Shown here piece by piece: positions 32,481 through 54,696 of a stretch of 64,000 nucleotides of DNA (within the stretch, counting starts at the first letter, position 1; each line of letters starts with the position of its first letter). Below the pieces are notes generated by a model. The model did not search any database, was not told the origin of the DNA, and saw nothing but the letters and a program-made list of their open reading frames with translations. The position numbers were made by a program, and so were the translations under genes. The stretch is taken from assembly GCA_037355855.1 (NCBI GenBank), contig CM074763.1, positions 3,038,001-3,102,000 on the forward strand, in the 5' to 3' direction. Source of the stretch: Pseudo-nitzschia pungens (taxonomy: Eukaryota > Bacillariophyta > Bacillariophyceae > Bacillariales > Bacillariaceae).

Positions 32481-32995
32481 CTGGAGCGGTCGGAAATAGA
32501 AAAACGCGCGCAATGCGCGGCACGTTAAGTTTTTCAAAATGATATGAACTTACCATACATATCCTACATATTATATCAACGTGTGATCTACGTATTACTT
32601 CGTAGGACTCCACGATTCAAAATTTAATGGGGATCGGAAATAGAAAAACGTGCGCACCGCGCGACAGGTTAAGTTTTTAAATGATACGTATGAACCTACC
32701 GTACATACTACATATATCAATGTGTGATTTACGTATTAATACGTAGAACGAGATAAGTAACGTTCATGAAAAAAATCTCCACGATTCAAATTTAAAAGGG
32801 GGAACCGGGAAACTAAAAATAGTTTTTTTTTGGTTCACGTAATTAAAATTAAAATTACGTACGTAATTAATTAATTACGTACGTAATTAATTAATTACGT
32901 ACGTAATTAATATTACGTACGATTGGATTTAATTACGTACGATTGGATTTAATTACGTACGATTGGATTTAATTACGTACGATTGAAGATTAATT
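32481..32995 (+). repeat. Left terminal inverted repeat of the giant element
   Basis: Matches the reverse complement of 48152-48662. It contains two copies of a block of about 145 bp that starts with TCGGAAATAGAAAAACG (near 32489 and 32635), each followed by an AT-rich TACGTATTA part. Then comes an inner zone of repeated TTAATTACGTACG and ACGATTGGATTTAATT words. Confidence 0.9.
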
Positions 32996-33187
32996 ACGTA
33001 ACTATGTGGCTTAAATAGGTAAAGTAGCCAATTTAACAAGGCAATAATAATTCAAATATGTCCTTTATAAATGTAAAACATAAGCCTTTTATTAAAGCCT
33101 CCAAATTGCTTCAATTTGATGACAAGGACGATGTATGCGCCTTTTAAAGTGCCGCTAACAGCCACATATTCGGTACCTTACGTACGT

Positions 33188-33475
33188 ACAATCTACGACT
33201 TGCACTAGTAAGTGGCTGTCAGCGCCACTTTAAATGGCGCCTGGTTACCCAAGTTGAAGTAGGGGCTATCATCTCCACTCTTTACAATCTACGACTTGCA
33301 CTAGTAAGTGGCTGTCAGCGCCACTTTAAATGGCGCCTGGTTACCCAAGTTGAAGTAGGGGCTATCATCTCCACTCTTTACAATCTACGACTTGCACTAG
33401 TAAGTGGCTGTCAGCGCCACTTTAAATGGCGCCTGGTTACCCAAGTTGAAGTAGGGGCTATCATCTCCACTCTTT
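33188..33475. repeat. Three tandem 96-bp units with GCGCC boxes
   Basis: Copies start at 33188, 33284 and 33380 and look nearly identical. Each has AGTGGCTGTCAGCGCCAC followed by TTTAAATGGCGCC. Further single boxes lie at 33571-33605 and 33775-33830. This is the subterminal zone between the left end repeat and the transposase gene. Confidence 0.9.
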
Positions 33476-33859
33476 AAACTTACCGTTGTACTGCAGAAAC
33501 GCCCGTTTAAGTGGCGCTAGAAGTCCTCACTCTGTCGGAGCTGAGTACCGTATGTACGTGAGGTACATACGAATAAGTGGCTGTCAGCGCCACTTTAGAT
33601 GGCGCCTTTACTGGTAAGATTTAGGCGATACAGTACACACACAGAAGCGCCTCTCATGTTGGCGCCTACGGTAATTAAGGCTTACCTTTACCAATACAAC
33701 AAGTGGCCGTGAGCGCGGTCAGAACCAAGACCAACCTGTCACACTTGCATGTCGCTTCAGTTATCACGTTATGCAGTGGCTGTCAGCGCCACTTCCAGGG
33801 GCGCCTCTACTATTCCAGGGGCGCCTCTAGCGCCATAGTGAATAGCATCACGTTCAACC

Positions 33860-34819
33860 ATGATTGCAACTGAAGAGATTTTTGATCAAGAAGCAAGAGA
33901 GACTCTTTGCTGGCCAAATCATCGCAGATGGAACTCGAAAGAGAAGGAAAAACGAATCCGTGCTGTGTTCGGAGCACCGCTCGATCTAATTGCAGACATA
34001 TGGAATAAGATCTGGGAGAAGTTGAGAAAGAGAGAGAGGGAAAAGCTTATTGAAGAAGGTGTTCAATACAAGCATCTTCTCTACGGGCTCGTTCTTATCA
34101 AGATATACTCGACAGAAGAAATCCATTGTGCAGTACTTGATTGGCCCTCAACAAAGACATTCCGTAAGTGGTCTTGGTTCTTCGTTGAAAAAATGTCCGA
34201 ACTTAAAGATGATGTCATAAAGTTAGAGAATAGATTTGGTGGGTACAAAAGGGGAGACGAGGTAAAGACCAACACATTCATGTCCGTTGACTGCGTCGAT
34301 TGTCCTATATTTGAGCCCTGGCCATTCGACAGGAAATGGTTCTCGCAGAAAACAAATGGGCCCGCATTGAAATATGAAGTAGGAGTCTGTATCAGAACTG
34401 CGCATATCGTCTGGATCAATGGTCCTTTCAAAGCCAGCGTGCAAGACCCGGCGATATTCAAAAACGGATTGAGCGAGAAGCTTGCAGTTGACGAATGCGT
34501 CGAAGCTGATGGGATCTACAATATCAGAGAAGATTCTGTTTCAGCGAGGCAACTTAAGAGGCCTGATATCGGATGGGATTCAGAAGCGAGGAAATCCAAG
34601 GCACTTGCTAGGTCGAGGAACGAAAGAGTTAATGGGAAACTCAAAGTCTTCAATGTACTTACTACATCCTTTCGGCATATGAAGCCAAGAGAAGCCATGA
34701 TGCAGAAGCACAAAATTTGCTTCACAGCTGTAGCTGTCATTACGCAGTTGAAAATGGAGGCAGGGGAAAAAATCGAAGACTGGGAATACGATGACGAATT
34801 CAAGCCGCATTACTTCTAG
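33860..34819 (+). CDS. DDE transposase, IS5/PIF-Harbinger type
   Basis: Frame of 319 codons. The central and C-terminal parts follow the DDE_Tnp_4-type pattern: FMSVDCVDCPI with the first catalytic Asp at about residue 139, a strand block KYEVGVCIRTAHIVWINGPF, then ELAVDE-like KLAVDECVEADGIY with the second Asp near 217, and ARSRNERVNGKLKVF with the Glu near 259, followed by FRHMKPREAMMQKHKICFTAVAVI. Upstream is a helix-rich part (LIADIWNKIWEKL, YKHLLYGLVLIKIY, STKTFRKW) suitable for DNA binding. The catalytic triad looks intact, so the protein may be active. It sits 860 bp from the left inner end repeat and should act on the element ends. Confidence is high for a DDE transposase and moderate for the exact superfamily. 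Confidence 0.8.
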   Translation: MIATEEIFDQEARETLCWPNHRRWNSKEKEKRIRAVFGAPLDLIADIWNKIWEKLRKREREKLIEEGVQYKHLLYGLVLIKIYSTEEIHCAVLDWPSTKTFRKWSWFFVEKMSELKDDVIKLENRFGGYKRGDEVKTNTFMSVDCVDCPIFEPWPFDRKWFSQKTNGPALKYEVGVCIRTAHIVWINGPFKASVQDPAIFKNGLSEKLAVDECVEADGIYNIREDSVSARQLKRPDIGWDSEARKSKALARSRNERVNGKLKVFNVLTTSFRHMKPREAMMQKHKICFTAVAVITQLKMEAGEKIEDWEYDDEFKPHYF

Positions 34820-35032
34820 AAGTCGGCAATCGCCATGAACGCCCCACGGCAACCGCCCTTCTCCGGAGTCTTTACCGCCACACTCAGGGTCGAACGAAGT
34901 CTTCTGTATAATTAAGTGCTCTATTTTAGTGAATAACCTAGAAGTCGGCCGCCGCCCTTCTCCAGATCGCAAGTTTTACTCTGCTTAATAAGAAACTCAA
35001 GTCGTCATGCTATATATGAACGACATAGGGCT

Positions 35033-37858
35033 TTATTTTTTTTTCTGCATCGGTCCAAACACTCTGAGCTCCTGCACGTCGGCATCTTCAGTATGATGCT
35101 CCCCATTTGTATTTTTTAACATGGCTTCGGCAGCCTCCGCCAATGCTTTGGCAAAAGGAACTCTGAACTCCTCAAAATGTTTCGGCACATAAAACATCAC
35201 GATGGGTTTATTTCTACTGTAGCGATTATTCTCCGCCGTTTTCGGATGCTCGACAAGTTGGTCGAACGTCCCCATGAAGTGGATTGAACAAGGTTTTGAA
35301 TCCCGATCTTTTTTACTTTGCCATGTAGTGCTTATCTGCAGATTTTGGATGCTCTTCTGAGAAGTTCGAAACAACCTACGAGCAGTTCTATCTTTGCAAC
35401 TGTGCACAGTGGTTGGAGGGTCACCAACTTTTCGCTTGCCACCTTTTTTACGGGGTTTTGTAAGCGGCTGAGTCGGGCAAACGCCTTCAGTTTTCATATC
35501 ATCAGCTGCAGCTGCTTCTGATGAAGATGCGCCCGGTAGCGAGATGCCAGGCAGAGAGCTGCCGGTTAGAGATGGGGCCAGCAGAGAATTGCCTGCTGGA
35601 GATGCGCCCGGCAGAGAGTCGCCCGGTGGAGATGAGGCCAGCAGAGAGTCACCAAGTGGAGATGCGCCCGGCAGAGAGCTGCCGGTTAGAGATGCGGCCA
35701 GTAGAGAGTCACCAAGTGGAGATGTGCCCTGCAGAGAGCTGCCGGTTAGAGATGCGGCCAGCAGAGAGTCAATCGGAGGAGATGTATCTGTAGGAAAAAG
35801 TTCTTCACTTTCTGTATCATCATCAACAGATACCCGCATGCCGCCCGGTCGAGGTGTGTCCGGTAGAGATCTTCCACACAGTGAAGAAGAATACCGCACC
35901 AGCTTTGCAAATGGCGACAAAAAATTTGGTTCCTCAAGCAGTGGTTGTGTGGTTTCCGATGAGGGTGTGGGCATTGCCTGTGTGGCTACCACTGGACTCT
36001 GTTTGAAACCACCTGGTGATGGACCAGTTGTTCCAGGCGGATCCCTTACGTTTCGGGTTATCGGCAACGCCATTTCCTGTGGCGCCGGCTTCCGAGCCGA
36101 CGCATTTGCCAGTGGCGCTGACTTCCGAGCTGACGCCTCTTCCTGTGGCGCTGACTTCCGAGCTGACGCCTCTTCCTGTGGCGCTGACTTCCGAGCCGAC
36201 GCCTCTTCCTGTGGCAACAACTTCCGAGCCGACGCCTTTGCCAGTGGCGCTGACTTCCGAGCCGACGCCTCTTCCTGTGACAACAGCTTCCGAGCCGACG
36301 CCTTTGCCAGTGGCGCTGACTTCCGAGCCGACGCCTCTTCCTGTGGCGCTGGCTTCCGAGCCGACGCCTTTGCCAGTGGCGCTGACTTCCGAGCCGACGC
36401 CTCTTCCTGTGGCGCTGGCTTCCGAGCCGACGCCTTTGCCAGTGGCGCTGACTTCCGAGCCGACGCCTCTTCCTGTGGCACCAACTTCCGAGCCGACGCC
36501 TTTGCCAGTGGCGCTGACTTCCGAGCCGACGCCTCTTCCTGTGGCACCAACTTCCGAGCCGACGCCTTTGCCAGTGGCGCTGACTTCCGAGCCGGCGCCA
36601 TTACTGGTGGATCCTTCATGGTTGACGGAGCATTCTTTGGAGTCGTCGCCATTGCCGGTGGATCCTTAGTCTTCGGAGTCGTTGACTTAGCCGCTGGCGC
36701 CTTCTGGGTTGCCATTGGAGTCGGTGGAGTCTTCTTTGCCGGTGGATCCTTCATGGTTGCCAATTCAGTCTTCTGAGTTGTCGCCTTTGCCGCTGGCGAC
36801 TTGTGGGTTGGAGTCGTCGGAGTCGTCAGCTTTGCCTTGTGGGTAGCCGGTGGATCCTTTGGTGCTAGCGCCATTGGTTGTGGTGCCCCGGAGTCAGCTC
36901 CTTTGCCGCTCGCGCCTTTGGTGGTGGGTGTGGTTATTGGGGTAACCTTTTTTTTCTTTGATGGTTTCGTGGAATCTGGCTTGCGCTTCCTATTGCGTTT
37001 TGTTGGTAAGATGAATCTTGGTTTCGATCGCTTTCTGAGCTGTATGCCATGGTGAAGAGCTGCAATATCTCCTCCCTCCTCAAATATCAACGGATCAGCG
37101 CTTTCATCTGGGCGTACAATCCTGCTTGGTGTTCGGGCAGCTTTTTTCTGAGTTGATTCAATGATCGAGCCGGTTGGTGTTTCCGAGACTTTGGGAGCCA
37201 GCATGTCGTTTGATGATGTTTCTTCAGAGAGACCTTCCTCGGTACGGTGAGTGGTTGGATCGACCGGTGCTGCAACTTGGGGAAAGAGACCTTCCTGGGT
37301 ACGGTAATCATCGACCGGTGCTGCAACTTGTGGAGAGAGACCTTCCTCGGTACGGTGATCGCCACCTGGAGTGGTTGGATCGACCGGTGCTGCAACTTGG
37401 GGAAAGAGACCTTCCTGGGTACGGTAATCATCGACCGGTGCTGCAACTTGTGGAGAGAGACCTTCCTGGGTACGGTGATCATCGACCGGTGCTGCAACTT
37501 GTGGAGAGAGACCTTCCTGGGTACGGTGATCATCGACTGATGCCGCAGCTTCTTGAGAGAGATCTTCCTCGGTACGGTGATCGCTACCTCGAATAGTTGG
37601 ATCGACCGGTGCTGCAACTTGGGGAAAGAGACCTTCCTGGGTACGGTGATCATCGACTGATGCCGCAGCTTCTAGAAAGAGATCTTCCTCGGTACGGTGA
37701 TCGCTACCTTGAATGGTTGGATTATAGTAGGAGGCTGAGTGGGCGCCATCATGGGCATCAAAAAATTCGCTGTCGTTAGAGGAATTGGAAGAGTTATCGT
37801 TATGTGCGTTCGAAGGGTTGCTTCCCGAAGCAGGCCAAAACCAGGCCATGGTTTCCAT
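35033..37858 (-). CDS. Giant-element protein with three internal repeat arrays (941 aa)
   Basis: Uninterrupted frame starting METMAWFWPASGSN. Order of parts: an N-terminal acidic Ser/Asn part; an array of about eight units of the form DHRTQEGLSPQVAAPVD (roughly residues 50-215); a basic nuclear-type segment (KRNRKRKPDSTKPSKKKK near 300); a Lys/Pro/Thr-rich part; a second array of 22-residue units ASARKSAPLAKASARK-PQEE (roughly 420-600); a third array of 20-residue SLLAASLTGSSLPGASPLGD units (roughly 690-780); and a non-repetitive C-terminal domain of about 150 residues (SIHFMGTFDQLVEHPKTAEN, MFYVPKHFEEFRVPFAKALAEA). The basic repeats resemble histone H1-like tails in composition only. No known family. 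Long overlapping plus-strand frames are side effects of the repeats. Confidence 0.6.
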   Translation of the reverse strand: METMAWFWPASGSNPSNAHNDNSSNSSNDSEFFDAHDGAHSASYYNPTIQGSDHRTEEDLFLEAAASVDDHRTQEGLFPQVAAPVDPTIRGSDHRTEEDLSQEAAASVDDHRTQEGLSPQVAAPVDDHRTQEGLSPQVAAPVDDYRTQEGLFPQVAAPVDPTTPGGDHRTEEGLSPQVAAPVDDYRTQEGLFPQVAAPVDPTTHRTEEGLSEETSSNDMLAPKVSETPTGSIIESTQKKAARTPSRIVRPDESADPLIFEEGGDIAALHHGIQLRKRSKPRFILPTKRNRKRKPDSTKPSKKKKVTPITTPTTKGASGKGADSGAPQPMALAPKDPPATHKAKLTTPTTPTHKSPAAKATTQKTELATMKDPPAKKTPPTPMATQKAPAAKSTTPKTKDPPAMATTPKNAPSTMKDPPVMAPARKSAPLAKASARKLVPQEEASARKSAPLAKASARKLVPQEEASARKSAPLAKASARKPAPQEEASARKSAPLAKASARKPAPQEEASARKSAPLAKASARKLLSQEEASARKSAPLAKASARKLLPQEEASARKSAPQEEASARKSAPQEEASARKSAPLANASARKPAPQEMALPITRNVRDPPGTTGPSPGGFKQSPVVATQAMPTPSSETTQPLLEEPNFLSPFAKLVRYSSSLCGRSLPDTPRPGGMRVSVDDDTESEELFPTDTSPPIDSLLAASLTGSSLQGTSPLGDSLLAASLTGSSLPGASPLGDSLLASSPPGDSLPGASPAGNSLLAPSLTGSSLPGISLPGASSSEAAAADDMKTEGVCPTQPLTKPRKKGGKRKVGDPPTTVHSCKDRTARRLFRTSQKSIQNLQISTTWQSKKDRDSKPCSIHFMGTFDQLVEHPKTAENNRYSRNKPIVMFYVPKHFEEFRVPFAKALAEAAEAMLKNTNGEHHTEDADVQELRVFGPMQKKK

Positions 37859-38571
37859 TCAATTGCGGAACAAATTCAAGTCGTTGATTTCAATTCTTTA
37901 TGAAAGAAGTTTTGAATTTTCTTTATGACAGGACTTTCCCCCTCTTTATCTTGTCGTAGTGGAGAGCAGCCAACGTCAACGAGCAGCAACCTCCCAGCGT
38001 GGACCACAGCAATCTCCAAGCGTGAACGGGCATCATCCTCCCAGCGTGGACGAGTATCATCCTTCCAGCGTGGTTTCATGTGTGTTTCAAATTTTGAACG
38101 TTAGCCAACTCTATTTGGGTCGGCGACAACCTTTTTGAGTGTCGAGAACTGGATGAATCCCTCGAGCGCTCCTTTCCAATCCCTCGTCTACGAGAGTCAA
38201 GCGCCACCGAGACAGTCGCCGATCTAAAAAGTGTGGATGCTGTTCCTTAAGTCTCCCAAGCGCCACTGAGACAGTCGCCAGCCTACACTAAGAGTGTCTA
38301 AGTGAAAGATGCAGATACGAATACGTAGTAATAATTTTGTTTTGTCTAACTACCGGTACGGTACCTGTACTGTACCGTATTAGTTTGACATCGAATTTCG
38401 ATGATCTACTGACAATTACGGTTTATGATTGGTGAGGGTACGTACGAGTAACCTTACTGGTACCAGGGATGACCCCTGACAACCTTGTATCGTTACCGGT
38501 AGGGGTAATCTTACCAGTGTACCTTTCGTGGTGCAACGGAATACAAGTTCTCGTAGTTCTTCTTTTCAATT
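37859..38571. other. Spacer in giant element with short direct repeats
   Basis: No gene supported. CCAGCGTGG motifs recur four to five times at 37995-38075. Two copies of AAGCGCCAC-GAGACAGTCGCC lie near 38200 and 38265. TACCGGTACGGTACC words lie at 38350-38380. Confidence 0.6.
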
Positions 38572-39102
38572 TTAAGGAGCCTTGTAATTGGGATTGATTC
38601 GACCAATCATGCGGAGTCGTTCAGCGCTTTCCTTCATCTCGCGTGCAACGCGCAAACGCATAGCCGCCCTAGTTTCGCGCTTTTTCTTGGTGTTCTTCTT
38701 CAAAACCGAGTTGTTGACTTCATTGATAAGAGCAGCACCGTCGCGAACTCCTCTGTCATATGCGGCTGCCTCCAAAGAAGCCATGTACTGGTTCATGAAC
38801 TTGATGTAGTCCGCCTCATTCCAGTCGTCTTCGTCGTCGTCGGCCGCTTCTTCCTCTGCAGCCTCCTCCTTCGCAGCAGCGTTGACGATGCGCCTGGAGA
38901 TCTTGTAGATTGCCGCAACAGGTTCAACGACGAGCTTCAAGAACACATACGAGATCAAAAGAAGTCCCAAGGAAAGAGCGACACGTTGAAGGGCGCCCTT
39001 GTACATCATCCACGCAGCAGCGGCGCCCCCAAGCATGGCGGTGCTGAGAACTGGGTGGGTTTGAACCACACTGGGCAAGATTACAGTGGTGTTACTGGAC
39101 AT
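38572..39102 (-). CDS. Small membrane protein with acidic/basic helical tail (giant element)
   Basis: Frame of 176 codons starting MSSNTTVILPSVV. Two hydrophobic segments lie at about residues 18-62 (AMLGGAAAAWMMYKG and ALSLGLLLISYVFLKLVV). An Ala/Glu/Asp-rich stretch follows (KEEAAEEEAADDDEDDW), then a helix with Met/Tyr/Gln (YIKFMNQYMASLEAAAYDRG) and a basic helix near the end (KKKRETRAAMRLRVAREMKE). It looks like a membrane-anchored protein with a long cytosolic coiled tail. No family recognised. Codon use and clean start and stop favour a real gene, and it is part of the element's cargo. Confidence 0.6.
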   Translation of the reverse strand: MSSNTTVILPSVVQTHPVLSTAMLGGAAAAWMMYKGALQRVALSLGLLLISYVFLKLVVEPVAAIYKISRRIVNAAAKEEAAEEEAADDDEDDWNEADYIKFMNQYMASLEAAAYDRGVRDGAALINEVNNSVLKKNTKKKRETRAAMRLRVAREMKESAERLRMIGRINPNYKAP

Positions 39103-39468
39103 GGCGAGACTTGAAAAGAGACTTGAAAAGAGAAAGCGTGAAAGTAGATGACAATCGATTTGCGAAAGAGAGCAGTCAATTTTTATGAAGGCAAGCAGTA
39201 CGATCGATTTTGATGCGAAGGAAGAAGTACAATCGATTTATGCGAAGCAAGATTTTACCAAAGAAAGTTTCAATCCAGTTTCAAAAAACTATGAGACAGG
39301 GTTGGCTCGCAGTTGGTAATGGGTGAAATTCAAAAAACCAACGTTGCAACGGAAAACAACGGAAAATTTCTCAAAATCCTTACCTATAACCTTGCGAAAT
39401 GAGGGTGCGCCTCACATTTTAAGTATCACAAATTATAAAAATTGCATCGTTAATCAAAAGACAGTACA
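39103..39468. other. Divergent promoter region within the giant element
   Basis: Separates the 176-aa gene (-) from the 129-aa gene (+). It shows short direct repeats AGACTTGAAAAGAG (39109-39133) and CGATTT/GAAGCAAG words. No gene seen. Confidence 0.5.
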
Positions 39469-39858
39469 ATGGGAAACCAGCCTTCTACCGTGACACCAAA
39501 CAATGAACCAAGGCTTGCCGAGGAAGATTGCGACGCCAGGGTCAACGAAGGAAAAGACGACGACTACGTAATGGTCAACGAAGGAAAAGACGACGACTAC
39601 GTAATGGTCAACGAAGAGAGAGAAGATGTGGTCGTAAGGAAACACGAGTCTTATGAAGATACCGTTGCCACCATTATTGACGAATATTTCAGTTCAAGCA
39701 GAGAAGAAGCGCCCTTGGTCAGAGACCAGCCTTCACTGGAACTCCAGCAGCCACGCAGCGCGGCGACACGTGTTCCCGCCATGCAGAAAGGCGGTGGGTC
39801 AATTCAGATGTCGACTGTCAGGGTGGTGGACGCCACGGAAAAAGGCGAAACGGAGTAA
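39469..39858 (+). CDS. N-myristoylation-type acidic protein (giant element)
   Basis: Frame of 129 codons starting MGNQPSTVTP. MG at positions 1-2 with Ser at 6 fits the N-myristoyltransferase consensus, so the protein may be lipid-anchored to membranes (inference). A duplicated 12-residue unit (VNEGKDDDYVM, twice, then a third partial VNEERED) follows, then an acidic helix (YEDTVATIIDEYF) and a polar tail. The rest of the protein is strongly acidic. No family recognised. Together with the neighbouring membrane protein it gives the element two likely membrane-associated products. Confidence 0.5.
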   Translation: MGNQPSTVTPNNEPRLAEEDCDARVNEGKDDDYVMVNEGKDDDYVMVNEEREDVVVRKHESYEDTVATIIDEYFSSSREEAPLVRDQPSLELQQPRSAATRVPAMQKGGGSIQMSTVRVVDATEKGETE

Positions 39859-40446
39859 GCTGCACGTTATAATGGCGGTGACAGCCCATTTTAGATACTC
39901 AACCACAATCTACAATTCACAACACGTGGGCGCCCCTAACGGTGGCGAATCCAACGATTTGCTACATAGACTACGAGTATCATAACTTTTTAAATCATAG
40001 TAGTATTATTGACTTTCATTACTTTTTTTCTCATGAATCGCTCATCGCTGCCAACCAGCAGACGACGGGCGTTCTATTCCTACGTATACTAATTTTTTAT
40101 GAACTGTTCACCGCTACCAACCAGCAGACAGGGAACTATTCTAATCAAGACATAAATTGCTCAATGCAGAGCAAGTTCTTCCAGACCTTCTTCCAAGGTT
40201 TTGATGGGATCGATCGAAGAAGATGAAATCGAATCATCATCTCCTGAATCGACGACAGTTCCGCTACCAACCAGCAGACATGGAACTATTCTAATCAAGA
40301 CCTAAATCGCTCAAATGCAGAGCAAGTTCTTCCAGACCTTCTTCCAAGGTTTTGATGGGATCGATCGAAGAAGATGAAATCGAATCATCATCTCCTGAAT
40401 CGACGTCACTCGAATCATCATCTCCTGAATCGAGGTCTCTAAATAG
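39859..40446. other. Spacer with a direct duplication of about 145 bp
   Basis: The segment beginning CCGCTACCAACCAGCAGACA occurs near 40109 and again near 40261. Each copy runs through CAGAGCAAGTTCTTCCAG and GATGGGATCGATCG to CTCCTGAATCGACG. Shorter CATCATCTCCTGAATCGA repeats extend to about 40435, next to the stop of the Pro-rich gene. No gene supported. Confidence 0.7.
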
Positions 40447-42304
40447 TCATAAATCAGTCTGAGAGTTGAACACAGAAGCATTATTGTGAGTTGTGTCATG
40501 TGAGTCGTCATGTGAGTCGCCATCGTCATTTTTTGGTTTCTTTTGGCATGTCTCTACAATGTCCTCGCCAACCTCAACCTCATCGTCATCCACTCTTTTT
40601 CTACTGGGCGTCCGGCGGCGTGGTGAGTAATGTCGCGTGGGGCTTCGACCTCTTTGCGGTGTAGTTTCTTGTCCAGTCGGTTCGCGAACGCCCTGCGGCC
40701 GTATGGGGGACGGGGGAATGACTTGTCCAGGCGGTTCGCGAGTGCACAGATCCACCGGAACAAGAGGGAGCGACGGGAGCGACGGTCGAGGCTCTACCGT
40801 CGGAGGAGCGGGGAGCGACGGTAGAGGCACCGTAGGAGGAGCGGGGAGCGACGGTAGAGGCACCGTAGGAGGAGCGGGGAGCGACGGTAGAGGCACCGTA
40901 GGAGGAGCGGGGAGCGACGGTAGAGGCACCGTCGGAGGAGCGGGGAGCGACGGTAGAGGCACCGTCGGAGGAGCGGGGAGCGACGGTAGAGGCACCGTCG
41001 GAGGAGGACGAGGGGCAGGAAACTCACCAAAATTGACAGCACCCTGACGATGGCTGACTGTTGCAACAGTTTTTTGACCTTCATCGGATTCAGTCTTCTC
41101 GTAAAAGAGTATCTGGAGAATGGTCGTATACTTCTTGGCTTCTTCGTCTGGGTGATACTCCGATTCATTCGAATCATCTGAAGCATCCATATCATCAGAA
41201 TCTTCATTCTTCTTCTCCTTCTTCTTCTTTTTGATTGGGACATCAAACAGATCCAAAACGACTTTTCCGTTTCTGGTGTCCATCGGATAGTCGAAGATAA
41301 AGTTGCCTTCGCTTCGCATCCTGTTGTCTTGGTATTGGGATTTCATATTCTTGACGTTCAGCCCCATACTGTCGTAGACTCGATGATTCGCAGGATAGCG
41401 CTGAATTTCCTCATCGCTCCCGTCTTTCCTGTATGTATCGAGAGTTGTGAGCATCAAGCACCTTTCCATGTACTCTGGCCACCTCATTTTTATGTTGAAA
41501 GTGTGCTCATTGACCCAAGAGATCTCGAAGTGTCTCAACTTGGCGTCATTATGAACGAGCATTCTCATCAAGCAATATCCTCTTTGAACTTCGGCTACTT
41601 GATCGAATTCGGTCCAACGACCAGAGATCATAATCATAGCGATAGCACCCTTGATTGACTGCTCCATTACGGGGCCGTTAATGTGGAGCTCATCGATACG
41701 ACGGGAGAGGTCGAGGTCAGTGCTACCAGAGCTTTGACGTTTCTTGGGGGTGGGTGTTCTGAGGATTGATTTCAACGGCATCTTGCCAGGCTTCTTCAGG
41801 TCACTGTCTTCAAGGTCGAATACTACTTGGCCTCCAGAATCAGATTTGGATGTTTCAGATTTGGATGTTTCAGATTCGTAGTCGGAATCCTCTTCACGTT
41901 CAAAAATAGATGGATGTCCCCCGTTCGGACGAACAAGCTTGAGTCCTTGCTTTCGAAGAAGTTCTGCTATTTCTGCCATTCGCTTGTGGAGAACAAGAAG
42001 CGTGAGAAACTTGCAATTGGCATTTGTATTTCTTCACAGTGCTCACCGCCATGCTGCGTGTCGCTAAACGTCTTACCTTTCCAAAGTGGTAGAATGATCC
42101 TTTTTTGATTTTGTCAGATATGGAAGCAGATGAATTCCACTGATCTACTCTTCCAGCTTTATCCGGATCCCAGCCAACCTTGCCTTCTGTCTCTCGGTAA
42201 ATCCAGTAGTTGTAGATACAGACTTTACCAACTGAGCTTTGCCTTTCAAATTGTTCTCTCGGCGAAGCCTGTTTCTTCCCAGCTGCTCCTTTGGTTCGTC
42301 CCAT
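40447..42304 (-). CDS. Spliced Pro-rich protein of the giant element (2 exons)
   Basis: Exon 1 is 42304-42077 (starts MGRTKGAAGKKQ) and exon 2 is 41982-40447. The 94-bp intron has GTAAGA and an AG acceptor, phase 0, and joins FYHFGK to RMAEIAELLRKQGL, giving about 587 residues. Parts: an N-terminal domain with aromatic residues (IYNYWIYRETEGKVGW, ISDKIKKGSFYHF); Ser/Glu-rich repeats (SETSKSETSKSD); a basic motif KSILRTPTPKKR; a globular middle (MIMISGRWTEFDQVAEVQRGYCLMRML, MRWPEYMERCLMLTTLDTYR); Lys/Asp/Glu stretches; and seven units of PTVPLPSLPAP before a basic C-terminus. Family unknown. Exon 2 has its own ATG at 41979 and would be the whole gene if the intron is not used. Confidence 0.6.
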
Positions 42305-42364
42305 GACAAATTATGAGAAGTTCGGAACTATTAGTTCGGAACGATTCTTTACACTACTACAAAG

Positions 42365-42439
42365 TTCCTATCAGCTGTCCCCCGGTTCTACATCCTCAAC
42401 TACTAATTTCTACGGAAACCGGGGGACAGCTGATAGGAA
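42365..42439. promoter_or_regulatory. Perfect 23-bp inverted repeat (hairpin) upstream of the spliced gene
   Basis: Arms at 42365-42387 and 42417-42439 are exact reverse complements (core CTATCAGCTGTCCCCCGG), with a 29-nt loop. It lies 60 bp upstream of the ATG of the minus-strand gene that starts at 42304. It could be a stem-loop in the 5' leader, a binding site, or the remnant of a small inverted-repeat insertion. Confidence 0.8.
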
Positions 42440-43263
42440 TTCCGTAGTATGCCGTGAGGCAAGCCGTTGCGAACTTGCTTAGAGTTTCGAAACTAGTACT
42501 TCATGATCAGGCAAGTTTCTGAGGTCGGTCTTGGTTCTTCAATGTTCAGTACAGTACCAACAGGGAACAAAGCGTCCATTTGACAGGCGTAGAGCGTTAG
42601 TTCGAGGGGCGTTTTCCGAGTAACTTATTTCTACTTAGTGAAAGTACATCATGTAATTAGCACGGTTCGTAATCGTACGAGGAACAAAGCGTCCATTTGA
42701 CGGGCGTTGATACTCGAACTGTGGAAGAGACGGGCGTTGATACTTGAACTATGAAAGAGCATGGGTTAATTACTAATCGTAAGTGGGATGCCCGATCTTG
42801 TTCTCGTTCAGTGGATGTTAGCGCCACCTCATCAAGACGAGCTTCTCCGAGTAAGGCTATTCTAATCGTAAGTAGGAAGGCCGATCTTGTTCTCGTTCAG
42901 TGGCTATGTGCGCTAAGTTACCGGTATGTCTATCGGTAATTTACCGGTACGGTAAGAACTTATTCTCCTTGAGAATTGTTACGGTTACGAGTGCTGCAGG
43001 CGCCAACGTGAGAGGCGCTTCAAGAATGAAATTAACGCCCCTTAACGTGGCGCTCAATGAACGGCGCCATTTTAAGTGACCATGCTTGCTAGGGCGCTCG
43101 CTAAAGTGCTCGCGTGCTCACTGCAGGGCTGGGCATCCGGTTCTAGTACTTATTGTACACTATGACCATACTCCACGGTAGTTGGAACTGTATCCCATAT
43201 TCAGTAGCGTAGCAACCTTAACCTTGTAGAACAATGCTACAGTGTGAACCTTGTACTGCTAAG
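42440..43263. other. Spacer with paired short repeats and GCGCC boxes
   Basis: Paired words: GAACAAAGCGTCCATTTGAC near 42566 and 42682, ACGGGCGTTGATACT twice near 42702-42735, and CCGATCTTGTTCTCGTTCAGTGG near 42790 and 42878. GCGCC-box words lie at 42993-43070. No gene supported. Confidence 0.6.
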
Positions 43264-44707
43264 AGCTGCTGGGGTGTGTAGCTCTGGTACAAATCCTACT
43301 TGAAGGGCCTAGTATCCTGTTTAGCATCCAGTTCAATATCTCCCCTGGCCTGATCAGTTCCGTCTATCTGTTAGCACACTAAATATCTTGTAATAAAGAG
43401 CTCCTAAGAGCTGTTGGGGTATGTAGCTCTGGTACAAATCCTACTTAAGGGGCCTAGCATCCTGTTTAGCATCCAGTTCAATATCCCCCCTGGCGAAGTT
43501 CCGTCTATCTGTTAGCACACTAAATATCTTGTAATAAAGAGCTCCTAAGAGCTGCTGGGGTATGTAGCTCTGGTACAAATCCTACTTAAGGGGCCTAGCA
43601 TCCTGTCTAACATCCAGTTCAATATCCCCCTGGCCTGATCAGTTCCGTCTATCTGTTAGCACACTAAATATCTTGTAATAAAGAGCTCCTAAGAGCTGCT
43701 GGGGTATGTAGCTCTGGTACAAATCCTACTTAAGGGGCCTAGCATCCTGTTTAGCACCCAGTTCAATATCCCCCTGGCCTGATCAGTTCCGTCTATCTGT
43801 TAGCACACTAAATATCTTGTAATAAAGAGCTCCTAAGAGCTGCTGGGGTATGTAGCTCTGGTACAAATCCTACTTAAGGGGCCTAGCATCCTGTTTAGCA
43901 TCCAGTTCAATATCCCCCCTGGCCTGATCAGTTCCGTCTATCTGTTAGCACACTAAATATCTTGTAATAAAGAGCTCCTAAGAGCTGCTGGGGTATGTAG
44001 CTCTGGTACAAATCCTACTTAAGGGGCCTAGCATCCTGTTTAGCACCCAGTTCAATATCCCCCCTGGCCTGATCAGTTCCGTCTATCTGTTAGCACACTA
44101 AATATCTTGTAATAAAGAGCTCCTAAGAGCTGCTGGGGTATGTAGCTCTGGTACAAATCCTACTTAAGGGGCCTAGCATCCTGTTTAGCATCCAGTTCAA
44201 TATCCCCCCTGGCCTGATCAGTTCCGTCTATCTGTTAGCACACTAAATATCTTGTAATAAAGAGCTCCTAAGAGCTGCTGGGGTATGTAGCTCTGGTACA
44301 AATCCTACTTAAGGGGCCTAGCATCCTGTTTAGCACCCAGTTCAATATCCCCCCTGGCCTGATCAGTTCCGTCTATCTGTTAGCACACTAAATATCTTGT
44401 AATAAAGAGCTCCTAAGAGCTGCTGGGGTATGTAGCTCTGGTACAAATCCTACTTAAGGGGCCTAGCATCCTGTTTAGCACCCAGTTCAATATCCCCCCT
44501 GGCCTGATCAGTTCCGTCTATCTGTTAGCACACTAAATATCTTGTAATAAAGAGCTCCTAAGAGCTGCTGGGGTATGTAGCTCTGGTACAAATCCTACTT
44601 AAGGGGCCTAGCATCCTGTTTAGCATCCAGTTCAATATCCCCCCTGGCCTGATCAGTTCCGTCTATCTGTTAGCACACTAAATATCTTGTAATAAAGAGC
44701 TCCTAAG
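43264..44707. repeat. Tandem array of ten units of about 145 bp
   Basis: Unit starts (AGCTGCTGGGG) fall at 43264, 43409, 43550, 43694, 43838, 43983, 44128, 44273, 44418 and 44563, and the array closes at 44707. Most periods are 145; early copies are 141-144 because of small deletions. Late copies look nearly identical and alternate GCATCCAG with GCACCCAG. Each junction has the near-palindrome GAGCTCCTAAGAGCT, preceded by TTGTAATAAA. No open frame spans the array. Confidence 0.95.
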
Positions 44708-45534
44708 AGCTTAGGAGTTGGGGTTCGTACATATCTATCCTACTAGAGGGCCCTACTACCATCCATTCGTACTATCACCCTGTAACACTCTAAGGTAGAA
44801 ATTCGGAGTAGTATGAATAATTGTGTGTTAATTCACTTTACGAGATGGGATTGAAATTAAAGAGAGGAAATAATGAGCGATGAGGTCATCGCGACCTTTT
44901 TGATTGAGTGACGGGAATCATGGAACTACTCGTACCGCCTTTTACAGTACTGGTGTAGGTTTCGTAAATTGGCTGTTAGCGCCGCTTCTTCCACAAAATT
45001 CTTTACAAACGGTACGATATGTACTGTAGAATCGCCCGTTAAAGTGGCGCTATGTGACCGTTAGCGCCACTTTCATCGGCGTCTCGTGGCTTATGATAAT
45101 TAATTACTATGCGCTGAGTTTCGATTTTTTTGAAAATTTGCTAATATAAATATATAGTAATGAAGATCGAATATTCCATATCAGGGCTTAATGGATGGGA
45201 AAGCCCCTCAAAAGGACGCCATGTGCCCCGTACGGTAACTCCCACAGCGAAAATTTGATCGTTCCATGATTCACGTCACTCAAAAACCTGAGTTCCCCAC
45301 GCTGAGTTCCCCACGCTGAGTTCCCCACGCTGAGTTCCCACGCTCCTCCATCCACACTCCCCTCCACGTTAACAGCTCACGCGTTACTTTGCTCACCACT
45401 TCCTTCTCTCACAACTTCCTTCTCTGCAACTTGTTTTCACTTCTCTCACAACTTCCTTCTCTGCAACTTGTTTTCACTTTGCTCACAACTTCCTCCAGCT
45501 CTCTGCAACTACAAGTACCTTCTAAACCACTCCC
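44708..45534. other. Spacer and promoter region of the Asp/Ala-repeat gene
   Basis: GCGCC boxes lie at about 44970-45080. A triple GAGTTCCCCACGCT repeat is at 45290-45340. CTTCCTTCTCTGCAACTTG direct repeats lie at 45400-45475, just upstream of the ATG. No gene seen. Confidence 0.6.
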
Positions 45535-46995
45535 ATGGAAAACTACGTCGAACAAATCCTCCGCATCGTGCATGCCGTCCAGGCCATTTCCCCTAACGCG
45601 ATGCCCGAACTAACTAACCGTGTCCGCCTAGCGGCCGCTCGGGCAATCGCCAGCACCCAGGGCGCAATTGGATCCGCCGCTCCTGCTGTCCTTGCGGTCC
45701 TCTCAGATGACACTAATGATCCTCCCCATGCAAACGCTGATCTCCCGGCAGACGCTGATCTCCAGGCTAATGACAATCCCGCACCTAACGCTGATCTCCC
45801 GGCAGACGCTGATCTCCAGGCTAACGACAATCCCCCACCTAATGTTGCTGATCTCCCGGAAGACGCTGATCTCCAGGCTAATGACAATCCCGCACCTAAC
45901 GCTGATCTCCCGGCAGACGCTGATCTCCCGGCAGACGCTGATCTCCCGGACGCTGATCTCCAGGCTAATGACAATCCCCCACCTAATGCTGCTGATCTCC
46001 CGGAAGACGCTGATCTCCAGGCTAATGACAATCCCCCACCTAATGCTGCTGATCTCCCGGAAGACGCTGATCTCCAGGCTAATGACAATCCCCCACCTGA
46101 TGCTGCTGATCTCCCGGCAAACGCTGATCTCCAGGCTAATGAAGATCTCCCGGCAAACGCTGATCTCCTGATCGCCGGAGACCCTTTCGCCGAGGACGAT
46201 TCGAGTGTCGAGGTCCCGCCTCCCGGCGAGCCTGATGCAATCGAGGAGGACGATTCGAGCGTCGAGGCTCCCGACGTTGAGATCGACCACGCGAACGAGC
46301 CCCCTTCCGGTTTGATTCAACTCAACTACCGCCGAAATATGACCAAACGCCTCATCCGACCCCAGGCCGTTCTTGACGAGCTTGCGCGCCGTGACATCAT
46401 TGGCGACCGCGCTGCGAACGTCTATGCTGTCCTCCGCCAGGGCCGCCCTACGATGCAGTCAAACGCCGCCACCGGCGCTGCCTTCATCCTAGCCATCCTC
46501 GGCCTACCCAGACTCGACTACGGCCTCAACATTCCGGGTGCTGTAGGTTCTAGCGGCACTTCTATCGGCCCTGCCACATTCCATAACCACCTCCTCAATC
46601 ACCTGCGGAATCACAATAGCCTCGTCTTTTCCGCCGTGTCTAACCTCCCCATCCACGAAACGCTCGCCGGGGTCCGGGAAACTATCCCCAACGTCCCCAA
46701 GCCAACCCCTACCACGCTCCAGCTTGTAACTGTCGCGTTCGCGCCGACCGCGAGGGACAACCTCCCTCACCGCGGCACCGCGTATTTGCGCTTCGCTGTC
46801 CTTAATGGCCTTCTTTTTGCCTTCAACGCGTCCTGCTACGCCCATTTGCTCGGCGCACGGCTTCAAGAATACCTTCAAAACCCCTTCCACCAGGCCCACT
46901 ACGCCAGCAACCTTTTCTTCAGATTACAGACCAGAGACCGGACTGGCGAACGTCGTCCCTATACCCACGTCGAAACCCGTTACTACTGGGTCTAA
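45535..46995 (+). CDS. Asp/Ala-repeat protein of the giant element (486 aa)
   Basis: Frame starting MENYVEQILRIVHAV. Residues 1-60 form a helical head. Residues about 62-215 are an array of about nine units of the form NADLPADADLQANDNPPP with length changes. A short acidic linker follows (EEDDSSVEAPDVEIDH). The C-terminal 230 residues are non-repetitive (IQLNYRRNMTKRLIRPQAVLDEL, GRPTMQSNAATGAAFILAILGLPRLDYG, HNHLLNHLRNHNSLVFSAV, RFAVLNGLLFAFNASCYAHLLGARLQEYL), ending THVETRYYWV. The C-terminal part looks like a compact, largely helical domain; I do not recognise it. It is the rightmost gene of the element and is transcribed toward the right end. Confidence 0.6.
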   Translation: MENYVEQILRIVHAVQAISPNAMPELTNRVRLAAARAIASTQGAIGSAAPAVLAVLSDDTNDPPHANADLPADADLQANDNPAPNADLPADADLQANDNPPPNVADLPEDADLQANDNPAPNADLPADADLPADADLPDADLQANDNPPPNAADLPEDADLQANDNPPPNAADLPEDADLQANDNPPPDAADLPANADLQANEDLPANADLLIAGDPFAEDDSSVEVPPPGEPDAIEEDDSSVEAPDVEIDHANEPPSGLIQLNYRRNMTKRLIRPQAVLDELARRDIIGDRAANVYAVLRQGRPTMQSNAATGAAFILAILGLPRLDYGLNIPGAVGSSGTSIGPATFHNHLLNHLRNHNSLVFSAVSNLPIHETLAGVRETIPNVPKPTPTTLQLVTVAFAPTARDNLPHRGTAYLRFAVLNGLLFAFNASCYAHLLGARLQEYLQNPFHQAHYASNLFFRLQTRDRTGERRPYTHVETRYYWV

Positions 46996-47145
46996 CCGCC
47001 GCACACCACCGACCAGAGACCGGACTGGCGAACGTCGTCCCTATACCCATGTCGAAACCCGTTACTGGGTCTAACCCCCGCACACCACCGCCGAGGCCTC
47101 CTTTTCTTCAGACTATGCCTATACCCACGTCGAAACCCGTTGACC
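46929..47145 (+). repeat. Partial tandem copies of the gene's 3' end
   Basis: The last 66 bases of the 486-aa gene (CCAGAGACCGGACTGGCG to the TAA) are followed by a second copy at about 47010-47075. A third, shorter remnant (CCTATACCCACGTCGAAACC) begins near 47116. Confidence 0.85.
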
Positions 47146-48151
47146 TCTCCCTTTCTCTTGAGCTGCTTGCATTTTATGGGCCCTTAGTAGGATAGAAATA
47201 TACCATAGCTAGATGCTGATAGCACTGTAACCTTTACCGGTAATCTTAGTCCTAATAGGCAGCGGTAACCTTACAGTTCCAGAGGCGCCATTTAAAGTGG
47301 CGCCGACAGCCACTTTTTAGTAAGGTTACCGGTACGTACGTTCGGTAAGGTTAAGCTCCCAGCCTACGATTTTTCGGTCTTAGCGCCACTTAAAGGGGCG
47401 TTTCTACCTTAACCTTAGCGTTAAGATCTTACTTACGGTAAGGTTAAGTTTAGAAGTGGCGCTGACAGAGTGGCGCTGACAGCCATAAAGGGGCGTTACC
47501 TTAGGGTTTACAAACGCAAGCTTTGAAGTGGCGCTGACAGCCACTGTAACGTACGGTAAGATCTTAGTCCGACTGTACTCCGTACCGTATATCTGTGGTT
47601 CTAGTACGTAAGTTACCGGTAAGTTAACCTTACGCAGCAGAGTGACTTTTAGCGCCACTTAAAGGGGCGTTTCATGGTAAGTTTAGAAGTGCGCTGACTT
47701 ACCTGTAACCCTAAACCCTAACTTACCTTACCTTACCAGTAAAGGCGCCATTGAAAGTGGCGCCGACAGCGCCCCGCACGTAAACCAGTTGGGATATTAG
47801 TACGTACGTACCGAATAAGTGGCTATCAGCGGCACTTTGAATGGCGCGTAGAGTGACTTTTAGCGCCACTAGAAGTGCGCTGACTTACCTGTAACCCTAA
47901 ACCCTAACTTACCTTACCTCACCAGTAAAGGCGCCATTGAAAGTGGCGCCGACAGCCCCCAGTACGTAAACCAGTTGGGATATTAGTACGTACGTACCGA
48001 ATAAGTGGCTATCAGCGGCACTTTGAATGGCGCGTATACCTTATACGTCTATAGTAATAGCCTACGCGCAACATTGATAGGCTTAAGTATATTTTTAATG
48101 TTATTTGGCTTATTTAATTATGATATAAGCCACTCAAGAGCTTAATTGTGA
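47146..48151. other. Right subterminal zone rich in GCGCC boxes
   Basis: No gene supported. Many AAGTGGCGC/GCGCCACTT and GGCGCCATT words occur, in both orientations, between 47280 and 48040. A block of about 190 bp is duplicated (about 47685-47850 and 47868-48035). Each copy contains the telomere-like word ACCCTAAACCCTAA and CCAGTTGGGATATTAGTACG. It mirrors the left subterminal zone at 33140-33840. Confidence 0.7.
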
Positions 48152-48662
48152 AATCGTGCGTAATTAAATCCAATCGTACGTAATTAAATCCAATCGTACG
48201 TAATTAAATCCAATCGTACGTAATATTAATTACGTACGTAATTAAATCCAATCGTACGTAATTAATTAATTACGTACGTAATTTTAATTTTAATTACGTA
48301 CGTTACGTAAAGAAAACCAATTTTTAGTTTCCCGGTGCCCCCTTTTTTAAATTTGAATCGTGGAGATTTTTTCATGAACGTTACTTATCTCGTTCTACGT
48401 ATTAATACGTAAATCACACATTTATATATGTAGAATGTACGGTAAGTTCATACGTATCATTTTGAAAAAACTTAACCTGTCGCGCGGTGCGCACGTTTTT
48501 CTATTTCCGACCGCTTTTTAAATTCACTTATCACGTTCTACGTAGTAATACGTAGATCACACGTTGATATATGTAGTATGTACGGTAAGTTCATACGTAC
48601 CATTTTGAAAAAACTTAACCTTTTGCGCGGTGCGCGCGTTTTTCTATTTCCGACCGCTCCAG
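48152..48662 (-). repeat. Right terminal inverted repeat of the giant element
   Basis: Reverse-complement match to 32481-32995 over about 510 bp. Like the left end it has an internal duplication of about 145 bp (TTTTTCTATTTCCGACCGC near 48497 and 48640). It ends with CCGCTCCAG at 48662. Confidence 0.9.
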
Positions 48663-48841: not shown

Positions 48842-49030
48842 TGCCATACCCCGGGTCTACTAGTGATTAGAATAGTAGTGATATGCAAATTGTGAGCTCT
48901 ATTGATTAGTCTATTTGCTACAGTTCTAAGAGCCTTCCGAATCGGCGATTCTGTCGACTCGCCGATTGTTTTTATCCTTATCCTTAATCCAGTCCCGTGT
49001 GTACTCGTGACTGTATTCTGGTGCACGGCA
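48842..49030 (-). repeat. 3' LTR (left copy)
   Basis: 189 bp, TGCCATACCC to GGTGCACGGCA on the plus strand, identical to 54508-54696. It contains a 9-bp inverted repeat AATCGGCGA/TCGCCGATT at 48940-48948 and 48959-48967. Confidence 0.95.
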
Positions 49031-49048
49031 TACTCCTCCATGGTACTG

Positions 49049-51922: not shown

Positions 51923-52315
51923 TCAGGAACTGTATTTTATATCTAGTCCCAGTTGTGCCATCAGGTCTGATCCTATGATCATGTCATAGGGTACTTCCTC
52001 GTGGTGATGATATTCGTCCACTTGGAAGGTCCATTTAATGGTCTTGGAGTTTGAAAATTCTATCAACCTCAGTCCCACTGAAGCCGCAGACTTGGTTCGG
52101 AACTTGCCCCCGTAAGTATTATAGGTGACAGATCTTTGGTCTCGGTTCGTTAGTTGACTTCGGTCGACAAACTGTTGTAGTATGATGGATTTGGAGCAAC
52201 CGGAGTCTAGTAGTCCCCGGAGCATCCTTCCCCTCCCCTTGTGATCCAATACCTCCACACAGACGTCCGCAAATCTGTTGATGATGCGGGGTCCCGTGTG
52301 GATGGTATCAGCCAT
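51923..52315 (-). CDS. Retrotransposon aspartic protease segment
   Basis: 131 codons between two TGA codons in the same frame as gag and pol. The active-site motif is LRGLLDSGCSKSII (DSG), and the C-terminal signature is VPYDMIIGSDLMAQLGLDIKYSS, the flap-distal part of retropepsins. The ATG at 52315 directly follows the gag TGA. The following frame TIEWQGDSIPM after the second TGA is the usual link into RT in related elements, so this segment is a part of one polyprotein rather than a separate gene. Retropepsins cut the Gag-Pol polyprotein. Confidence 0.85.
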   Translation of the reverse strand: MADTIHTGPRIINRFADVCVEVLDHKGRGRMLRGLLDSGCSKSIILQQFVDRSQLTNRDQRSVTYNTYGGKFRTKSAASVGLRLIEFSNSKTIKWTFQVDEYHHHEEVPYDMIIGSDLMAQLGLDIKYSS

Positions 52316-53755: not shown

Positions 53756-54507
53756 GGTGGTTTAATCAGTTGTTTATTAAGTTACTTTAGTTACACTATT
53801 TCTGTTATTTCACTGCTTGTGGTGAGATTGAGCAAAAAGTGATTGCTCAGTTCCTCCAGTTTTTCTTGCTGGATTTTCATTGCTCTCGTGATAACTCGTG
53901 TTGTAACTGATTTTCCCCCTGGTTTGTCCAGTGGTGGGAGTTGTTTCTCTCTTTAGTTCCCGGGAATCCTGTGGTTCTCCGGAGTTGTTTCTGTTTTTAT
54001 AACGTGGGATTTGATTCCCGTGGTTCTCCGGCGTTGCTTCTCTATTAAGCAATCACCGGGCCGGTCCCACTTCCCGTTTCCCGTGGGATTGGTGGTGTTT
54101 AGGTATTCATTATATACCTTTCCGGATATCCGTATACTTCGGTTTTGGTTGGCATCCCCTATTCGGTCTGTCCATCCACTCAGTGTTGGTCCAATTAGTC
54201 CACTCACTGGATCATGTGTCACTTTTTCGACACTTATTTCATTATTTCTTTTGTTCGATTATTTCTGCTGTCGACCATGGTCCTGTTTAGGTACTTAGGT
54301 GTCTCTGTTGCTGCTGTTGCTCCCTTCTTTGGGCGCCAACAGTTGCTGGGGTCGGTCTTCCTTGTGCTGCAGACACTGGATATCCTTCTCCCTGTTTTTG
54401 CCTCTCTGTGCCTCCATTTTCTGGCAGTCTTTCGATCTCGTCGGCGCCTTGGCCGATCGATCTCTTTCTGCTCATGGTCATCAGCACTCAGCTTGATTTT
54501 AAAATCA

Positions 54508-54696
54508 TGCCATACCCCGGGTCTACTAGTGATTAGAATAGTAGTGATATGCAAATTGTGAGCTCTATTGATTAGTCTATTTGCTACAGTTCTAAGAGCC
54601 TTCCGAATCGGCGATTCTGTCGACTCGCCGATTGTTTTTATCCTTATCCTTAATCCAGTCCCGTGTGTACTCGTGACTGTATTCTGGTGCACGGCA
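54508..54696 (-). repeat. 5' LTR (right copy)
   Basis: 189 bp, identical to 48842-49030. It holds the element's promoter by position. The GATAC target duplication follows at 54697-54701. Confidence 0.95.

What the first reader, a model, noticed from the sequence alone, without database searches (positions are those of the whole stretch)
32481..48662. A 16.2-kb DNA-transposon-like element with 510-bp ends, a DDE transposase and five unrecognised cargo genes
Seen: long inverted ends that stop sharply at CTGGAGCGG on both sides, an apparently intact DDE transposase next to the left end, five more genes on both strands, subterminal repeat zones at both ends, and a tandem array in the middle. Known: Harbinger-type elements are usually only a few kb and carry the transposase plus one Myb-like protein. 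Inference: this is a large cargo-bearing DNA transposon, perhaps an undescribed family, comparable in concept to other giant elements but with its own gene set. No target duplication is visible, so the insertion could be old or the ends could be rearranged.
Basis: partly seen in the sequence, partly recalled or inferred. Interest (0 to 1): 0.88.

Follow-up and report, generated by a model that had tools for sequence, protein, structure and literature searches.

The report
Sixteen-kilobase diatom transposon with cargo genes
This is a real, recently mobile 16-kb DNA transposon in what appears to be a diatom genome, an oversized relative of the Harbinger family that carries four extra genes, one of them apparently taken from a different kind of mobile element.

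Summary
The window copy spans 32484-48659 (16,176 bp). The same genome holds five more large copies with the same ends and genes, and one 1.2-kb internally deleted copy; the three read in full are 99.3-99.8% identical to it. The transposase is DDE_Tnp_4, i.e. Harbinger-type (superfamily PHIS). The end sequence recurs 182 times in the genome (control 0), mostly on shorter elements. The 'missing' target duplication is 3 bp, usually CAG or CTG; here its two copies differ at the centre (CTG/CAG), as in 4 of 7 copies. Of the 'five cargo genes', the 941-aa gene is probably the transposase's partner: its C-terminal domain recurs beside related transposases. Four are extras. The 486-aa gene appears to descend from a tyrosine-recombinase-like element. 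For the other three I found no relative in the collections searched, which did not include the large protein set. Selection on the cargo was not shown. New variant of a known kind. What the cargo does is not known; accessory functions serving the element are the likeliest explanation.

The parts
32481..32483 (.). left target trinucleotide CTG
   Evidence: small relatives and three of seven copies show matching 3-bp flanks
32484..32990 (+). left terminal inverted repeat; its first ~150 bp unit is duplicated compared with the small relatives
33140..33859 (.). left subterminal repeat zone (three identical 96-bp copies at 33187-33476; GCGCTGACAGCCAC motif x5)
33860..34819 (+). DDE transposase, 319 aa, PF13359; D144/D147 and E255 invariant and D217 nearly invariant among 19 aligned relatives
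35033..37858 (-). probable transposase partner protein, 941 aa, long repeats plus a conserved C-terminal domain of about 120 aa; tail-to-tail with the transposase
38572..39102 (-). extra gene 1: 176-aa protein with one predicted membrane-spanning stretch (about residues 37-66) and a charged C-terminal half
   Evidence: no family match below cut-off
39469..39858 (+). extra gene 2: 129-aa acidic protein (pI 4.3) starting MGNQPS, resembling an N-myristoylation signal (motif recalled, not computed)
40447..42304 (-). extra gene 3: 510-aa frame, probably 596 aa with an upstream exon (intron 42010-42076)
43259..44711 (.). tandem array, 145 bp x 10.1, related (mostly 72-82%) to dispersed repeats elsewhere in the genome
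45243..45315 (+). stretch 80-83% identical (61-74 bp) to the DNA between the recombinase-like gene and the 331-aa gene of another mobile element, including the last codons of the former
45535..46995 (+). extra gene 4: 486-aa protein whose C-terminal ~225 aa are 45-48% identical to a protein of recombinase-like elements
47283..48051 (.). right subterminal repeat zone
48152..48659 (-). right terminal inverted repeat
48660..48662 (.). right target trinucleotide CAG (left copy reads CTG)

Best explanation
A large, probably self-sufficient cut-and-paste DNA transposon of the Harbinger superfamily (PHIS) in a diatom. Shown: six large copies with common ends and genes, a 3-bp CNG-type target duplication, and a DDE transposase. 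Inferred: the transposase and its partner protein bind the ~510-bp ends and subterminal repeats, excise the whole 16 kb, and insert it at CNG sites; the same machinery also moves the much more numerous short elements that share the ends. The four extra genes travel with it. One was captured, with upstream DNA, from a tyrosine-recombinase-like element. The other three (a one-span membrane protein, a small acidic possibly lipid-anchored protein, a ~596-aa protein) most likely serve the element rather than the host. That last step is a guess.
For: Six large copies and one internally deleted copy share ends; transposase, partner domain and the four extra genes are each found in all six large copies. 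Identity to the window copy 99.78, 99.65 and 99.28% for the three read in full. Equal 3-bp flanks in 3 of 7 copies and, among 32 neighbouring end pairs flanked by CAG or CTG on both sides, 27 equal and 5 unequal. The C2 copy sits in a tandem repeat whose other units show the empty site...AATA-CAG-GGGG..., with CAG left and CTG right of the element. Partner domain recurs within 2.5 kb of a related transposase at 4 of 42 other places, including the three best matches. End and subterminal motifs are shared with four small relatives. In coding stretches 16 of 17 pairwise indels are multiples of three, in non-coding 7 of 29 (events are shared between pairs, and the coding repeat units are themselves multiples of three).
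Against: No excision, insertion polymorphism or expression was observed. Four of seven copies have unequal target trinucleotides. One copy has a frameshifted transposase (C12), one has two stops in the 510-aa frame (C2), one has a broken 486-aa frame (C10). The cargo shows no sign of purifying selection between copies: cargo substitution is higher than non-coding in 4 of 6 pairs (nominally significant in two, p=0.005 and 0.004, both with C7) and lower, not significantly, in two; non-synonymous to synonymous changes in the extra genes between C6 and C7 are 27 to 6. The partner has no Pfam hit, so its role is argued from position only, and 38 of its 42 other places had no transposase relative nearby.
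Confidence: 0.85

Rival explanations
1. An ordinary two-gene Harbinger-type transposon (transposase plus partner) that was swollen by nested insertions; the 'cargo' is debris of other mobile elements hitch-hiking, without function for transposon or host.
For: The 486-aa gene comes from another mobile element; the tandem array belongs to a dispersed repeat family; cargo evolves no slower than non-coding DNA; nested insertions fixed in many copies are reported for giant KDZ, EnSpm and Sola-1 elements of the brown alga Ectocarpus (PMC12477816, passages).
Against: All four extra frames are open in the four copies read in full, and coding indels nearly always keep the frame. No nested pair of long terminal repeats encloses the cargo: the longest inverted pairs at 37860-47280 are 33 nt (local hairpin) and 29 nt at 79% around the 486-aa gene.
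Confidence: 0.35
2. A virus-like or Polinton-like element using a Harbinger transposase; the membrane and possibly lipid-anchored proteins would be particle or entry proteins.
For: Size and ~500-bp ends resemble Polintons (recalled; size 15-25 kb per PMC6431247, passages); one membrane-span protein and one myristoylation-like N-terminus.
Against: No polymerase, integrase, capsid or packaging family in Pfam, PHROGs or NCBIfam above chance; viral-contig scans with four queries gave no relative (the single-sequence ones reach close relatives only).
Confidence: 0.04
3. A host gene block that happens to lie between two solo ends and was spread by segmental duplication, not transposition.
For: One small relative was indeed copied by segmental duplication: L065 and L066 share 3.7 kb including flanks at 98.5%.
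Against: The flanks of the seven copies differ right outside the ends, the trinucleotide flanks are CNG-like in 12 of 14 cases, and a paralogous empty site exists for the C2 copy.
Confidence: 0.02

Closest known systems
PHIS superfamily, group NuwaI (Harbinger relatives with CWG target duplications; PMC4482050)
   Same: DDE transposase of the DDE_Tnp_4 type; 3-bp CWG-like target duplication; second gene beside the transposase
   Different: NuwaI was reported only from animals, about 4.5 kb, ends of 12-61 bp, second gene with a Myb/SANT domain; here diatom, 16.2 kb, ends about 510 bp, no Myb hit, four extra genes. Its transposase was not compared with NuwaI sequences, which I could not obtain.
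Stramenopile Harbinger elements (Ectocarpus, PMC12477816)
   Same: transposase and second gene tail-to-tail
   Different: Ectocarpus elements use ANT or TNA target sites; the giants reported there are KDZ, EnSpm and Sola-1, not Harbinger
Cryptons of diatoms and oomycetes (CryptonS, PMC3212892)
   Same: donor-type element: the relatives of the 486-aa gene lie beside a recombinase-like gene
   Different: this element itself carries no such recombinase (none of 39 matches in the six copies) and uses a DDE transposase with inverted ends
Other giant eukaryotic transposons (Teratorn, Polintons; review PMC6431247; Starships recalled)
   Same: oversized mobile element carrying genes beyond those for transposition
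   Different: different enzymes (piggyBac-like, integrase/PolB, tyrosine recombinase) and gene sets; the words Harbinger and PIF occur 0 times in that review

Membership tests
PHIS (Harbinger) superfamily | DDE transposase of the DDE_Tnp_4 type | tested here: met
   PF13359 E=2e-7, above cut-off; catalytic-type D, D, E conserved among 19 relatives
PHIS (Harbinger) superfamily | terminal inverted repeats | tested here: met
PHIS (Harbinger) superfamily | short (2-3 bp) target duplication | tested here: met
   3 bp; equal in 3 of 7 copies, centre unequal in 4 of 7; 27 of 32 CWG-flanked pairs equal
PIF/Harbinger group in the narrow sense | TWA target duplication | tested here: not met
   98 of 182 ends are flanked by CAG (54) or CTG (44)
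PIF/Harbinger and NuwaI groups | second gene with a Myb/SANT domain | tested here: not met
   no Pfam match for the 941-aa protein at E<=1
NuwaI group | CWG target duplication | tested here: met
NuwaI group | transposase clusters with NuwaI in a tree | not tested
   reference sequences not held
Polinton/Maverick | protein-primed PolB, retroviral-type integrase, capsid genes | tested here: not met
   no such Pfam match in the six proteins
Crypton / tyrosine-recombinase element | own tyrosine recombinase | tested here: not met
   note that the neighbouring gene of the donor element has no Pfam or PDB match and is called recombinase-like from its HSLR...DYVR motif, recalled

The most novel reading that the evidence does not exclude
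A Harbinger-type transposon that has become a gene-collecting vehicle, comparable in concept to fungal Starships: it captured a gene with its upstream DNA from a recombinase-type element, and carries a membrane-spanning and a possibly lipid-anchored protein that help the element persist or pass between cells (for example at mating) rather than only between sites. A further unusual feature would be that the inserting element brings 3-nt overhangs from its donor site, so that mismatched centres of the target trinucleotide are common.
Probability: 0.12. Interest if true: 0.8.

Novelty: new variant of a known kind. Interest (0 to 1): 0.55.

Why it matters
Harbinger-type elements are known as small two-gene transposons (average about 4.1 kb in the survey PMC4482050). 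A young multi-copy 16-kb member with four extra genes would extend the list of superfamilies that carry cargo, and the gene shared with a recombinase-type element gives a dated, traceable case of gene exchange between unrelated mobile elements in one genome. The unequal target trinucleotides make a specific question about the insertion step testable.

Tried and rejected
Rejected: old or rearranged insertion as the reason for the missing target duplication (copies too similar; empty site at C2). Rejected: the 14.2-kb pair on C11 as another cargo-bearing member; the 3.0 kb read from its inside is a Ty3-type retrotransposon, although the other 11 kb were not read. The 13.4-kb pair on C8 was not read.

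Led nowhere: protein search with the 486-aa protein, whole (7,999 best candidates scored) and residues 258-486 (2,618 candidates): none at E<=0.001. AlphaFold models from single sequences for parts of the 486- and 510-aa proteins were useless (mean pLDDT 35.0 and 36.5) and were not compared with structure libraries. PDB sequence searches: 486-aa protein, middle of the 510-aa protein and 176-aa protein gave best E-values of 0.12, 0.088 and 0.37. The profile A1 of the 486-aa protein and three paralogs matched Mediator subunit 15 (E=2.7e-5) and INO80 (1.4e-4), but only in its repetitive Asn/Ala-rich part (positions 31-130), which I take as composition. PHROGs' best was a terminase small subunit at E=0.015 for the 176-aa protein, taken as chance; NCBIfam's best 0.014, far below cut-off; Pfam also gave sub-threshold matches TMEM240, cytochrome b559 and Rad4. 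Rfam: none. Of nine partner-domain sequences attempted, two (L077, L080) gave no tblastn match and were left out of the alignment.
Full report
What is there. The element runs from 32484 to 48659, with inverted ends of about 510 bp. The host is inferred to be a diatom: the window lies in a 66.9-Mb, 28-contig genome, and the named relatives of the transposase carry Pseudo-nitzschia multiseries, Cylindrotheca fusiformis and Cyclotella cryptica identifiers (the first and last read from their codes, recalled).

Copies. The end matches at six large loci (C2, C6 = window, C7, C9, C10, C12) and one 1.2-kb copy on C8 that keeps only about 600 bp of each end. Each of the six large copies has the transposase, the partner's domain and the four extra genes. 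Over the four copies read in full, identity to the window copy is 99.78% (C12), 99.65% (C9) and 99.28% (C7). Not all are intact: C12 has a shifted frame in the transposase, C2 two stops in the 510-aa frame, C10 a broken 486-aa frame. C6, C9 and C7 have the main coding frames open. C2 and C10 were not read in full.

The wider family. The pattern GAGCGGTCGGAAATAGAAAAACG, with up to two mismatches, occurs 92 times forward and 90 times reverse, against 0 for the reversed control (100 of 182 places listed). From this partial list and the two full lists for CAG- and CTG-flanked ends (54 and 44), 44 neighbouring inward-facing pairs under 20 kb were formed: 7 are this element and 37 are others, 31 of which are 5 kb or shorter by my count of that list. 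The transposase at 98% identity or more occurs only in the six large copies, so the short elements probably depend on it. The four small relatives read have a single-unit end of about 350 bp and share the subterminal motif.

Target sites. Flanks of the seven copies, genomic or transposase-left orientation as: C12 CAG/CAG, C9 CAG/CAG, C7 CAA/CAA; C6 CTG/CAG, C8 CAG/CTG, C2 CAG/CTG, C10 CGG/CTG. So 3 of 7 are equal and 4 differ only at the centre; 12 of 14 flanks read CNG. Small relatives: CTG/CTG, CAG/CAG, CGG/CCG, plus one segmental duplicate of the first. Of the 44 pairs, 32 have CAG or CTG on both sides: 27 equal and 5 unequal. Unequal pairs are 3 of 5 in this element and 2 of 27 in the others (Fisher p=0.018; one of the 27 equal pairs is the segmental duplicate, and numbers are small). 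At C2 the element sits in a tandem repeat whose neighbouring unit shows the site without it, reading CAG where the right flank has CTG, so the difference arose at or after insertion at a single site and is not recombination between copies. An inserting element that brings 3-nt overhangs from its donor would explain this; that is a hypothesis.

The genes. Transposase: 319 aa, PF13359, closest database relative 75% identical. The 941-aa gene lies tail-to-tail with it, the layout reported for Harbinger elements of the brown alga Ectocarpus (PMC12477816, passages). Its C-terminal 122 aa match 42 other places; 4 of these, including the three best (50-51% identical), lie within 2.5 kb of a transposase relative, in tail-to-tail (C2) or same-strand (C5 twice, C7) order. 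It has no Pfam match and no sign of the Myb/SANT domain that defines the usual second gene.

The 486-aa gene has 12 other long matches in the genome at 45-54% identity, plus one short one. Eleven of the 12 lie beside a gene whose ending HSLR...DYVR resembles tyrosine recombinases; that name is from memory, since Pfam and PDB give no match. In all 8 of these loci that were held, 61-74 bp upstream of the gene are 80-83% identical to window 45243-45315, and the stretch begins in the last codons of the recombinase-like frame (TANI-stop there, TAKI-stop here). I read this as capture from that element into the transposon. None of the six transposon copies retains the recombinase-like gene.

The other three extra genes (176, 129 and about 596 aa) were found only in the six copies in this genome. 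The first has one strongly hydrophobic stretch, the second is acidic (pI 4.3) and begins MGNQPS. None matched a family above cut-off (the 510-aa frame's middle only in PHROGs).

Are the extra genes maintained? For: open frames, and indels that keep the frame (16 of 17 coding against 7 of 29 non-coding, with the caveat that coding repeat units are multiples of three and events are shared between pairs). Against: cargo substitutions are no rarer than non-coding ones; in two comparisons with C7 they are more common (0.67 and 0.69% against 0.28 and 0.29%), and changes between C6 and C7 in the extra genes are 27 non-synonymous to 6 synonymous, about what no selection would give. The copies are too young to decide.

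Comparison with what is known. The survey of the superfamily (PMC4482050, passages and section 7) gives CWG target duplications for group NuwaI, reported from animals only, with ends of 12-61 bp, about 4.5 kb and a Myb/SANT second gene. This element shares the target site but none of the rest, so I file it in the superfamily, not in NuwaI. The review of giant transposons (PMC6431247, passages) does not contain the words Harbinger or PIF. Literature searches (listings only apart from the passages named) showed no description of such an element; Repbase and subscription papers were not available, so it may be described there.

Noticed in passing
window 48842-54696: A Ty3-type LTR retrotransposon (pol domains at 49049-51892) with 189-bp LTR stretches 100% identical (48842-49030 and 54508-54696), so very young; it starts 182 bp beyond the right end of the transposon. 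Related copies lie beside the C8 copy and inside the C11 pair.
   Followed up: partly
window 43259-44711: The 145-bp tandem unit belongs to a dispersed repeat family with many other arrays in the genome (146 matches, 40 of 267 candidate stretches scored), several with inverted partners nearby and a cluster on C11 around 1.74-1.81 Mb. Not explained.
   Followed up: partly
window 44727-44755 and 47175-47203: A 29-nt inverted pair (79%) encloses the 486-aa gene; both arms resemble the start of the 145-bp unit. It could be the trace of the event that brought the gene in.
   Followed up: partly
window 46929-47090: The last codons of the 486-aa gene are repeated downstream as a degenerate copy (82 bp x 2.0), while the original C-terminus RDRTGERR..H.ETRYYWV is conserved to the last residue in the paralogs.
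   Followed up: no
G000 C8:2750282 (13.4 kb) and C8:3213264 (11.8 kb): Two other large pairs of the same ends; contents unread.
   Followed up: no
G000 C7:3795007, C12:2002600 and others: A second family of recombinase-like genes (37-40% identical, 444-aa frames) in at least 15 copies without a neighbouring relative of the 486-aa gene.
   Followed up: no
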